Origin: a virus | Length of the DNA stretch: 32,488 bases | Virus record (IMG/VR): IMGVR_UViG_3300044641_002779 | Location: 1-32,488 of that record | Reading direction: 5' to 3' (one strand) | Shown: positions 29,124 through 32,177 of the stretch, piece after piece | How the letters are laid out: each line of letters starts with the position of its first letter | How positions within the stretch are numbered: position 1 is the stretch's first letter | Notes under the pieces: generated by a model | Databases searched by the model: none | What the model was told of the DNA's origin: nothing | The model's input: the letters and a program-made list of their open reading frames with translations, nothing else | Translations under genes and position numbers: made by a program

Positions 29124-29131
29124 TCTAAATA
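29124..29131 (+). promoter_or_regulatory. Late-promoter-like box TCTAAATA before gp19
   Basis: Identical to the box before gp13, with the same 17-base spacing to the ATG and a strong AAGGAGTAA between. In the 27-base gap after gp18 it would give the abundant tube protein its own transcript. Confidence 0.7.
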
Positions 29132-29148: not shown

Positions 29149-29760
29149 ATGCCAGTAGATCCATCAAATAACATTCAGGGTTTCGTAAACGCCTTCGCTG
29201 GCGGTGGTGTTCGCACTAATCTGTTCAAGGTCACGGGAAACATTCCCGGATATTCGAACAACCGCGCCATCTCGTTCTTGTGCAAGGCAGCACAGATTCC
29301 TGCGTCCTCGCTTGGAACCATTGAGGTTCCGTATCGTGGTCGCCGCATCAAACTGCCAGGAGATCGTACATTCCAAGACTGGACTATCACGATCATCTCT
29401 GATGCCAACATGAGCCTGCGTTCGTATTTCGAGGCTTGGAGCATGACATTCAATTCCCATGTCTCTAATGTGGCTCCGACAAACTTCATGCGTTTCATGC
29501 CTACATGGTCTGTAACGCAATTGAAGCGCGATGGCGAAGCACTCCGTACATACAACTTCATTGGGTGCTATCCAAGTGAAGTTGGTGCAATTGACCTTTC
29601 GTTTGAAAACAACGATCAGATTGCCGAATTCCCTGTCACCATTAACTTCTCATGGTGGGAAGCCGCTCCAGGTGGAGCAGTTCCTGCTACGGGTACTGGA
29701 CAGGAGAACATTCAGTCCACGGTGCAGAGAACCGGAATCAATATCGGTCCCGGTTTCTGA
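29149..29760 (+). CDS. 19: Tail tube protein gp19
   Basis: 203 aa; T4 gp19 is 163 aa. Hexameric rings of it stack to form the rigid tube inside the sheath. ATG at 29149 with AAGGAG. Features: an N-terminal IQGFVNAFAGGGVRTNLFKVTGNIPG strand-loop, FLCKAAQIPASSLGTIEVPYRGRRIKLPGDRTFQDWTITIISD (the inner beta barrel strands), YFEAWSMTFNSHVSN, and IGCYPSEVGAIDLSFENNDQIAEFPVTINFSWWE. A flexible Gly/Thr/Gln C-terminal tail follows. It is next to gp18 as in T4. The longer length than T4 comes from the C-terminal tail and one loop. Confidence 0.95.
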   Translation: MPVDPSNNIQGFVNAFAGGGVRTNLFKVTGNIPGYSNNRAISFLCKAAQIPASSLGTIEVPYRGRRIKLPGDRTFQDWTITIISDANMSLRSYFEAWSMTFNSHVSNVAPTNFMRFMPTWSVTQLKRDGEALRTYNFIGCYPSEVGAIDLSFENNDQIAEFPVTINFSWWEAAPGGAVPATGTGQENIQSTVQRTGINIGPGF

Positions 29761-29787
29761 CGCTCCTTTTGACAGGATTCTTTATTC

Positions 29788-31428
29788 ATGGCTATTAATC
29801 TATTTGGATTCACTATCTCTAAAAAAGAGACTTCTGTGGAGGAAACTCCCAAGAAGTCTCTTTCCTTTGTCGCACCCGAGCAGGATGACGGCTCAGTACC
29901 AATAGAGGTTGGTGGATACTTTGGAACAGTGGTTGACTTTGATGGCACCATCAAGTCCGACATTGAACTCATTCGCAAGTACCGCGACATGGCACTCCAC
30001 CCTGAAGTGGAATCTGCCATTGCGGATATTTGCAATGAAGCCATTGTGTACGATGAAACTTTTAAAACCGTAAAGATTGACACTGCCAATCTGAAACAGT
30101 CCAAGTCCATCAAGGACAAGGTGGAAGCAGAGTTTGATGAAATTCTTGGGCTGCTAGATTTCTCGCGCCGCAGTTACGAGATTTTCCGTAAGTGGTACAT
30201 CGACAGCCGCCTGTACTACCACATCATTATTGATGACAAGAACAAGAAGAAGGGTATTGTAGAACTGCGTCCTATTGATCCCACAAAGATCCGTAAGGTT
30301 CGCAAGATCAACAAGAAGCCTCTTGACAAGATGGCTCCTGCTAATGTCAAAGTGGTTACCTCGGTTGAAGAGTTCTATGTGTTCAACGAGCAGGAGCCAA
30401 ACTCCACTGCCCTGTCGATGGAAGGGTTGAAGATTCAGCCAGACTCCATCTGCTTTGTTCACAGTGGACTGTTTGATGCGTATCACAAAAAGATCATTGG
30501 ATATCTGCACAAGGCTATCAAGGCACTGAACCAACTCCGCATGATTGAAGACGCAGTGGTGATCTATCGCATCACCCGCGCTCCCGAGCGGCGCGTGTTC
30601 TATGTGGATGTAGGCAATCTGCCCAAGCAAAAGGCAGAAGAGTATGTGCGCGGACTCATGCAGCGGTATCGTAACAAACTCATGTACGATTCCAGCACGG
30701 GCGAAGTGCAAGACGCACGCAAGCACCTGTCCATGCTTGAGGACTTCTGGATGCCACGACGCGAAGGCGGTCGCGGCACAGAGATTCAGACGCTTGAGGG
30801 CGGGCAGAATCTTTCGGAAATGGAAGATGTCAAGTACTTCCAAAAGAAACTATTTCAGTCTCTGAATGTTCCAAGTTCGCGTCTTGAAGAAGGCACGGGC
30901 TTCAACTTGGGCAAGGCTTCCGAGATTAGCCGCGATGAAGTAAAGTTCTTCAAGTTTATTGAACGCCTACGCATGAAGTTCTCTGAACTGTTCCTTGAAC
31001 TGCTGCGTGTGCAGTTGGTTCTCAAGGGTATCATCCGTGAGGACGAGTGGGAAGAAATCGAAGATCGTATTGGATTCCAATTTGCCAAGGACTCGCACTT
31101 CTCCGAACTCAAGGAAAGTGAAATACTCAAGGATCGTCTACAGTCCGCTCGTGACGCGGAAGACTTTGTTGGCAAGTACTACTCCCGTGAATGGGTTCGT
31201 AGAAAAATATTGCGTCAAACCGAAGACGACATAGAGCAAATAGATAAACAAATCACTATGGAAGAAAAGAGTGGTGTGCTGATGATGCCTGGACAGGAAG
31301 CAGGGGCTATGCCCACGCCAGAAATGGCACCTGCCCCCGCCGCTCCTGCCCCACAAGGTGCAGGGCAACAACCACAGGTAACAATTGGTGAAATCGTTCC
31401 TGATGACGAAAAGGGATTCAATCAGTAA
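29788..31428 (+). CDS. 20: Portal vertex protein gp20
   Basis: 546 aa; T4 gp20 is 524 aa. Twelve copies make the portal that nucleates prohead assembly and is the DNA channel. ATG at 29788, with a modest AGGAT upstream and no clear own promoter. Features: the YRDMALHPEVESAIADICNEAIV opening helix, YYHIIIDDKNKKKGIVELRPIDPTKIRKVRKI, and the widely shared block RAPERRVFYVDVGNLPKQKAEEYV to LEDFWMPRREGGRGTEIQTL, then YFQKKLFQSLNVPSSRLEE. The last 55 residues are a Pro/Ala/Gln/Met-rich tail (APAPAAPAPQGAGQQP) that looks disordered and could bind core or terminase. A long stem-loop lies in codons 13-26. Its low copy per virion, next to the highly expressed gp19, makes down-regulation plausible. Confidence 0.96.
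   Translation: MAINLFGFTISKKETSVEETPKKSLSFVAPEQDDGSVPIEVGGYFGTVVDFDGTIKSDIELIRKYRDMALHPEVESAIADICNEAIVYDETFKTVKIDTANLKQSKSIKDKVEAEFDEILGLLDFSRRSYEIFRKWYIDSRLYYHIIIDDKNKKKGIVELRPIDPTKIRKVRKINKKPLDKMAPANVKVVTSVEEFYVFNEQEPNSTALSMEGLKIQPDSICFVHSGLFDAYHKKIIGYLHKAIKALNQLRMIEDAVVIYRITRAPERRVFYVDVGNLPKQKAEEYVRGLMQRYRNKLMYDSSTGEVQDARKHLSMLEDFWMPRREGGRGTEIQTLEGGQNLSEMEDVKYFQKKLFQSLNVPSSRLEEGTGFNLGKASEISRDEVKFFKFIERLRMKFSELFLELLRVQLVLKGIIREDEWEEIEDRIGFQFAKDSHFSELKESEILKDRLQSARDAEDFVGKYYSREWVRRKILRQTEDDIEQIDKQITMEEKSGVLMMPGQEAGAMPTPEMAPAPAAPAPQGAGQQPQVTIGEIVPDDEKGFNQ
29824..29863 (+). other. Long RNA stem-loop at the 5' end of the portal gene
   Basis: AAAGAGACTTCT (29824-29835) pairs perfectly with AGAAGTCTCTTT (29852-29863). 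Inside, GGAG (29838-29841) pairs with CTCC (29846-29849) around a GAAA tetraloop, with a 2x2 internal loop (GT/CA) between the stems. The whole structure lies 36-75 bases after the A of the gp20 ATG. It is followed by CCTTTG, not a clear U-run, so it is not a standard terminator. It may dampen gp20 translation or transcription, or mark an RNA cleavage site; function unproven. Confidence 0.8.
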
Positions 31429-31628: not shown

Positions 31629-32177
31629 ATGGACACCAATAAACTGATTGCAAAAGCACTGCTTAACAAGAGTTTTTCTGAAGCCAAGGAATTGGTCTTC
31701 AAGTCGCTCTACGCCAAGTCTTCTCTTGCATTGGACGAGGCTCGTTACGATGTGGCTAACAGCGTGTTCAACGAAGCCAAGACCTCTCCTGACACCGGCG
31801 TTCCTGCTGGTGCAAGCGAAGACAAGTTCAAGGCTGCTCGCGCTACAATCAAGAAGGCAGGCTACAAGGCTAAACTCGGCAAGGGCGTTCCCGCTGGTGC
31901 CGTGAAAGAAGAAGCCGAACTAGACGAGATGGCAATCACCGCTGCCCGTGCGCGTGAACACAATCGCGCAATAGATCGTGCTGACTATAAGGCTTGGGCA
32001 TATACGAATCCCGATAATCGTCAGGGAATGTGGAAAGACGGCAAAGCCAAGAGTCCTGCTCATATCAAGAAGGGCAAAGGACTTGAGAAGGCTTACGACA
32101 CTGCTGTGAAGAAACTAAAAAAGGAACGAGCCTCCAAGACGCTATATGGTCGTGGCGGCAAGGCGGTAAAGAAGTGA
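31629..32177 (+). CDS. Prohead core/scaffold protein, gp68-like
   Basis: 182 aa; T4 gp68 is 141 aa. It lies between the small acidic ORF and gp21, as gene 68 does. The ATG at 31629 is six bases after AAAGGAGA; an ATG four bases earlier is out of frame and soon stops. The N-terminal helix (IAKALLNKSFSEAKELVF, then YAKSSLALDEARYDVANSVFNE) follows the usual pattern for gp68-like and other scaffold proteins of T4-like phages. GVPAGA occurs twice (57-62, 86-91). VFNE|A at 47-51 resembles the gp21 cleavage pattern (hydrophobic-X-Glu before a small residue). The C-terminal 80 residues are unusually basic (KKLKKERASK, then GRGGKAVKK) and may touch DNA or the acidic core. The gene ends four bases into the gp21 start (GTGA). 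Confidence 0.7.
   Translation: MDTNKLIAKALLNKSFSEAKELVFKSLYAKSSLALDEARYDVANSVFNEAKTSPDTGVPAGASEDKFKAARATIKKAGYKAKLGKGVPAGAVKEEAELDEMAITAARAREHNRAIDRADYKAWAYTNPDNRQGMWKDGKAKSPAHIKKGKGLEKAYDTAVKKLKKERASKTLYGRGGKAVKK

What the first reader, a model, noticed from the sequence alone, without database searches (positions are those of the whole stretch)
29824..29863. Strong stem-loop just inside the portal gene
Seen: 12 perfectly paired bases plus an inner GGAG/CTCC stem capped by GAAA, 36-75 bases into gp20, directly downstream of the abundantly used gp19. In a protein needed at 12 copies per particle, a hairpin here could dampen expression relative to gp19, act as an RNase site, or pause the ribosome. 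I know of no described regulator of this form for gene 20.
Basis: partly seen in the sequence, partly recalled or inferred. Interest (0 to 1): 0.65.

Follow-up and report, generated by a model that had tools for sequence, protein, structure and literature searches.

The report
Conserved mRNA hairpin opening portal gene
The start of the gene for the phage's DNA-entry (portal) protein carries an RNA hairpin that evolution keeps, by matched base changes, across many T4-like phages of cyanophage type, probably to make little portal protein next to an abundant tail protein encoded just upstream.

Summary
The hairpin exists exactly as described (29824-29863, +37..+76 of gene 20: 12 bp, 2x2 internal loop, 4 bp, GAAA; -23.1 kcal/mol). 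It is far more stable than the same peptide needs (z -5.0; 0/3000 synonymous permutations) and is the most stable 40-mer in the window. Taken alone that is not decisive: 6 of 24 codon-permuted windows contain an equally stable 40-mer somewhere.

Comparison makes it real. In 32 distinct relatives the stem is kept with matched changes on both sides (18 cells, 0/500 shuffles). Over 144 sequence clusters of cyanophage-type portal genes, nucleotides +36..+84 are the structural peak of the gene start (mean z -2.2 against about -0.5 further in). Different clades have unrelated stems at this place; the two further clades I counted also covary. The bias favours the sense strand, so the RNA is what matters. 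Straboviridae lack it in the gene but carry a hairpin in the gp19|gp20 gap.

Best reading: an expression 'step-down' hairpin at the junction of an abundant gene (gp19) and a low-copy gene (gp20). Whether it works by mRNA 3'-end protection or by slowing ribosomes is untested. It is not a terminator and matches no Rfam family.

The parts
29824..29863 (+). mRNA hairpin inside gene 20 (+37..+76): 12-bp stem, 2x2 internal loop, 4-bp stem, GAAA loop
   Evidence: covariation
29788..31428 (+). gene 20, portal protein; the hairpin encodes residues 13-26, a linker that varies in sequence and length, before the Pfam portal domain (residues 59-492)
29149..29760 (+). gene 19, tail tube protein, the upstream neighbour
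29761..29787 (+). 27-nt gp19-gp20 gap with the weak SD-like AGGA (29774-29777); TTGACAGGATTCTTTATTC is near-invariant in the clade; no hairpin here
29125..29131 (+). CTAAATA, late-promoter-like motif upstream of gp19; no exact match between it and 31598, so gp19 and gp20 probably share a late transcript (inference)
   Evidence: late motif NATAAATA described for S-PM2 in PMC2984593
31598..31604 (+). next CTAAATA motif, after gene 20

Best explanation
It is a cis-acting hairpin of the sense mRNA at the gp19|gp20 junction. Its probable job is to set an expression step, so that much tail tube protein (gp19) and little portal protein (gp20) come from shared late transcripts. Shown here: a conserved, covarying, sense-strand RNA hairpin in a fixed zone of gene 20. 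Inferred: gp19 and gp20 share a transcript, and the hairpin lowers gp20 relative to gp19. Most likely step, inferred: it stops 3'-to-5' exonucleases or marks a decay and processing boundary, so that the gp19 part of the mRNA outlives the gp20 part. It sits beyond about +35, where it does not block ribosome binding at the gp20 start, and in the one stretch of portal sequence free to vary. Some slowing of the first ribosomes on gp20 would act in the same direction.
For: Stem kept by matched changes in the window clade (94.5% of cells paired against 64-65% when slid by one; 18 double-change cells, 0/500 shuffles) and in two clades with unrelated stems. 144 clusters: mean z -2.22 at +36..+84, 33% below -3, against about -0.5 and 4% beyond +250. 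Strong stems start at a median of +38 (IQR 34-44) with the apex at +60. Sense-strand bias: z -2.20 against -1.41 (Wilcoxon 1e-9), weak in a control region; 45 G.U cells against 2 A.C cells in the clade alignment. The gene start itself is unstructured (z about +0.2). All eight Straboviridae/Ackermannviridae/Vibrio genomes and cyanophage ACG-2014f, which lack it in the gene, have a hairpin in the gp19-gp20 gap. Junctions with a hairpin in gap or gene: gp19|gp20 76%, gp23|gp3 69%, against 12-29% for most others.
Against: No expression, RNA-end or decay data. The trade-off with gap hairpins is significant over clusters (Fisher p 0.006) but not after grouping by protein family (p 0.07-0.72). gp3, the parallel case, shows no clean single hairpin in the gene. 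Other scarce late genes lack the signal. Ribosomes translating gp20 would melt the hairpin part of the time. About half of the 144 clusters have z above -2 at this place, although 20 of the 32 clusters with neither a gap hairpin nor one here have structure slightly further in.
Confidence: 0.42

Rival explanations
1. Translational roadblock: a ribosome that has just started gp20 meets the stem at about codon 8-12, slows, and while it waits covers the start site, so fewer ribosomes start and gp20 output falls. mRNA stability of gp19 is not involved.
For: Position is tightly kept at +38. In E. coli, ORF structure correlates with low translation efficiency, rho -0.76 (PMC5318159). Stem-loops early in the coding region lower expression, more so when close to the start codon (PMC10942595 citing Paulus 2004).
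Against: The stem begins beyond the footprint of an initiating ribosome, where effects on initiation are expected to be small (general knowledge). Many relatives place a hairpin upstream of the gp20 start instead, which a fixed-spacing roadblock does not explain. Scarce gp15, gp16 and gp17 lack it.
Confidence: 0.26
2. Binding site for a protein (portal, a chaperone of gp40 type, or a host factor) that represses gp20 translation or carries the mRNA to the membrane where prohead assembly begins.
For: Hairpin operators near start codons are classical in phages (general knowledge). T4 prohead assembly starts from membrane-bound portal with gp40 (PMC9958956). Part of the stem is invariant within the window clade.
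Against: Stem and loop sequences differ completely between clades, so recognition would have to be re-evolved each time.
Confidence: 0.1
3. Helper of gp20 initiation: the hairpin holds the 30S subunit at a weak start site or keeps the start region from pairing with distant sequence.
For: gp20 of the window clade has only a weak SD-like AGGA, unlike the AAGGAG of gp18, gp19 and gp23; the start region is kept open.
Against: Marine clades with a good SD have equally strong hairpins, and SD strength does not track the hairpin in the predicted direction (Spearman -0.18; mean z -2.07 with weak and -1.96 with strong SD).
Confidence: 0.1
4. Intrinsic terminator or attenuator inside gene 20 that ends part of the gp19 transcripts.
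For: Many relatives have terminator-like hairpins in the gp19-gp20 gap; P-SSM4 and S-CAM22 have TTTTGTTC next to the core stem.
Against: The window hairpin is not a terminator match; only 3 of 49 strong clusters have at least 5 T in the 8 nt after the stem.
Confidence: 0.06
5. By-product: chance, peptide composition, or a DNA-level palindrome (recombination, packaging) without RNA function.
For: A hairpin this stable appears somewhere in 6 of 24 permuted windows.
Against: Position, covariation, sense-strand bias and gene specificity.
Confidence: 0.06

Closest known systems
Intercistronic hairpins that set segmental mRNA stability in operons (puf of Rhodobacter, REP elements of malEFG; from general knowledge)
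   Same: hairpin at a step from an abundant upstream product to a scarce downstream product; RNA structure kept rather than sequence
   Different: here it lies inside the downstream coding sequence; no decay data
Early-coding-region mRNA structure that lowers translation in bacteria (PMC5318159; Paulus 2004 as cited in PMC10942595)
   Same: stable stem in the first 80 nt of an ORF in a probable polycistronic mRNA
   Different: those effects are strongest next to the start codon; this one is kept beyond +35 and is maintained across a phage lineage by covariation
Intergenic terminator-like or T4-type hairpins between genes 19 and 20 of Straboviridae
   Same: same junction, similar stem strength
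   Different: between the genes, several with a T-rich tail; no in-gene hairpin
Phage translational operators (MS2 replicase type, T4 gp32 and gp43 sites; general knowledge)
   Same: hairpin near a phage gene start
   Different: no conserved loop or sequence between clades; lies wholly downstream of the start codon

Membership tests
Conserved structured RNA element | compensatory changes beyond chance on the proposed pairs | tested here: met
   18 cells, 0/500; 22 cells, 0/500; 15 cells, 0/500; slid controls much lower
Conserved structured RNA element | acts as sense RNA (G.U tolerated, A.C not) | tested here: met
Known Rfam family | match above the curated cut-off | tested here: not met
   none; only a chance miRNA match, E 0.77, on the other strand
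Intrinsic terminator | G+C-rich stem followed at once by a U tract | tested here: not met
Segmental-stability hairpin | located at the junction of an abundant and a scarce gene | tested here: met
   copy numbers are T4 knowledge, not measured here
Segmental-stability hairpin | upstream mRNA outlives downstream mRNA; RNA ends at the hairpin | not testable with these tools
   no transcript data held
Translation-dampening early-ORF structure | stable structure in the early ORF beyond codon needs | tested here: met
Translation-dampening early-ORF structure | fewer ribosomes or less protein per mRNA | not testable with these tools
   needs reporters or ribosome profiling
Protein operator | shared loop or sequence motif across relatives | tested here: not met
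   loops differ between clades

The most novel reading that the evidence does not exclude
T4-like phages set part of their virion stoichiometry with hairpins placed at steps from an abundant to a scarce gene (gp19|gp20, gp23|gp3). Where the gap is too short, the hairpin is written into the portal's free N-terminal linker and is rebuilt from new sequence in each lineage, so that RNA rather than protein shapes that stretch of the portal.
Probability: 0.35. Interest if true: 0.75.

Novelty: new member of a known kind. Interest (0 to 1): 0.57.

Why it matters
Gene 20 is a standard marker gene of cyanophage ecology, yet I found no described RNA element at its start in the papers searched (a limited open library). 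If the reading holds, it gives a concrete, testable device by which large phages make structural proteins in unequal amounts from one mRNA, shows an RNA signal constraining the N-terminal linker of an essential assembly initiator, and can be tested in cultured phages such as P-SSM4 or S-CAM22.

Tried and rejected
Low stoichiometry as a general rule: 7 cyanophage genomes suggested it (gp15, gp16, gp17 and gp3 beside gp20), but 36 further records kept only gp20 and gp3. SD-compensation: no consistent link. Own late promoter against hairpin: no difference (p 0.17). Terminator: not met. Trade-off between gap and in-gene hairpins: suggestive only after correction for relatedness. Fixed spacing: the hairpin apex follows neither the LFG motif nor the DDG motif of the protein, but scatter is large. 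Rfam: nothing. Literature searches for a portal or gene 20 hairpin: nothing relevant. The exact stem pattern in viral contigs returned 13 matches, apparently all in portal loci of this clade. A first profile run timed out and was repeated with fewer permutations. Codon identity along the gene: hairpin codons are among the more conserved but not the most.

Full report
THE OBSERVATION. The window is an IMG/VR virus record of 32,488 bases. ORF 29788-31428 is a T4-like portal protein (PF07230, E 1e-180) and 29149-29760 the gp19 tail tube. The hairpin lies at 29824-29863, +37..+76 of gene 20, with exactly the pairing described. Against synonymous permutations of the gene it is -23.1 versus -6.3 kcal/mol (z -5.0, 0/3000) and it is the most stable 40-mer on the + strand. 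A 40-mer this stable occurs somewhere in 6 of 24 codon-permuted windows, so one sequence alone would not prove anything.

CONSERVATION IN THE CLADE. 67 portal genes from viral contigs, mostly at 80% or more amino acid identity, carry the hairpin in 32 distinct versions. The linker it encodes changes in length and in residues, yet the stem is kept: 94.5% of cells paired against 64-65% for partners slid by one column; 6 pairs and 18 cells with changes on both sides, 0/500 shuffles as high. Examples are GAGACUUC/GAAGUCUC to GGGACUUC/GAAGUCCC (L015) and GGCUUC/GAAGCC (L175). One-sided changes give G.U (45 cells), hardly ever A.C (2 cells), which points to the sense RNA. Relatives at about 71% identity (L054-L059) and beyond lack this stem.

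BEYOND THE CLADE. I profiled 144 sequence clusters of portal genes, mostly cyanophage-type, with 48-nt windows against synonymous permutations. Windows at +36..+84 are the peak (mean z -2.22; 33% below -3); the start itself is unstructured (+0.17) and the level beyond +250 is -0.1 to -0.7. Without the window clade the peak is still -2.04. Stems in different clades are unrelated in sequence but sit in the same linker between LFGF and the DDG motif. Strong stems start at a median of +38 (IQR 34-44), apex +60, and occur in 21 of 59 families at 80% protein identity. A freshwater-type clade (53 sequences) and a marine clade (13 sequences) covary on their own stems. The bias is stronger on the sense strand (-2.20 against -1.41; Wilcoxon 1e-9, clusters not fully independent), with little difference at +151..+222. 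Cultured phages P-SSM4, S-CAM22, S-RIM12, ACG-2014e and S-PRM1 have it.

GENE SPECIFICITY. In seven Kyanoviridae genomes gp15, gp20, gp17, gp16 and gp3 had the strongest early structure and gp13, gp22 and gp23 little. In a second set of 36 records plus the window (403 genes), gp20 (-2.49, 41% below -3) and gp3 (-2.22) remained; gp15, gp16 and gp17 fell to the background. So 'scarce product' alone is not the rule. Looking at junctions, a hairpin in the gap or in the early gene is found at 76% of gp19|gp20 and 69% of gp23|gp3 junctions, against 12% for gp18|gp19, 22% for gp22|gp23 and 14-29% for most others. These two follow an abundant product and precede a scarce one (copy numbers from T4 knowledge).

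THE JUNCTION VIEW. Straboviridae, Ackermannviridae and Vibrio relatives show no in-gene signal, but all eight have a strong hairpin in the gp19-gp20 gap; so does ACG-2014f, the one cyanophage of seven without it in the gene. Over 139 clusters, in-gene structure is rarer when the gap has a hairpin (21/61 against 46/78, Fisher p 0.006), but the trend is not significant after family grouping. I treat this as suggestive.

MECHANISM. The hairpin is not a terminator, not an Rfam family, and shares no loop motif across clades. CTAAATA motifs, like the late promoters described for cyanophages (PMC2984593), lie before gp19 and after gp20 with no exact match between them, so the two genes probably share a late transcript. 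I favour a step-down hairpin that separates a long-lived gp19 mRNA segment from gp20, placed beyond +35 to spare gp20 initiation; a ribosome roadblock is the main rival and could act together with it. In E. coli, ORF structure correlates strongly with low translation efficiency (PMC5318159), and early stem-loops lower expression more the closer they are to the start (PMC10942595). Nothing here measures expression.

VERDICT. Observation confirmed and extended; interpretation partly supported. I rate it a new member of a known kind (cis-acting mRNA hairpins that tune neighbouring genes), with an unusual feature: position conserved and sequence rebuilt in each lineage.

Noticed in passing
29769-29787: TTGACAGGATTCTTTATTC before the gp20 ATG is nearly invariant across the clade although non-coding, and has only a weak SD-like AGGA, while gp18, gp19 and gp23 have AAGGAG.
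   Followed up: partly
16791, 22252, 29125, 31598: All four exact CTAAATA matches in the window are on the + strand, 24-38 nt before a gene start; late-promoter-like (18 of 100 shuffles reach four).
   Followed up: partly
L306-L312 upstream of gp3: gp3 of the window clade has no SD-like sequence and follows a perfect terminator-like hairpin after gp23 (GGGGAGGGGGAAACCCCTCCCCTTTT).
   Followed up: partly
L298:4326-4820 and L299:1080-1529 (gp16): The small terminase gene of RB9 and Aeromonas phage 25 has very strong early coding structure (z -5.2 and -4.8), unlike its cyanophage homologues.
   Followed up: no
L110, L226, L229 portal genes, windows after +108: Very strong local structure deeper in the gene (z -7 to -9) in single clusters.
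   Followed up: no
L102, L116, L131, L153, L184 portal genes, about +70..+117: The DPKQ..F marine clade lacks the +38 hairpin but often has one over the DDG motif (GCGGATGATGG...CCATCGCCGC).
   Followed up: partly
31629-32177: ORF in the gp21 position with no Pfam match.
   Followed up: no
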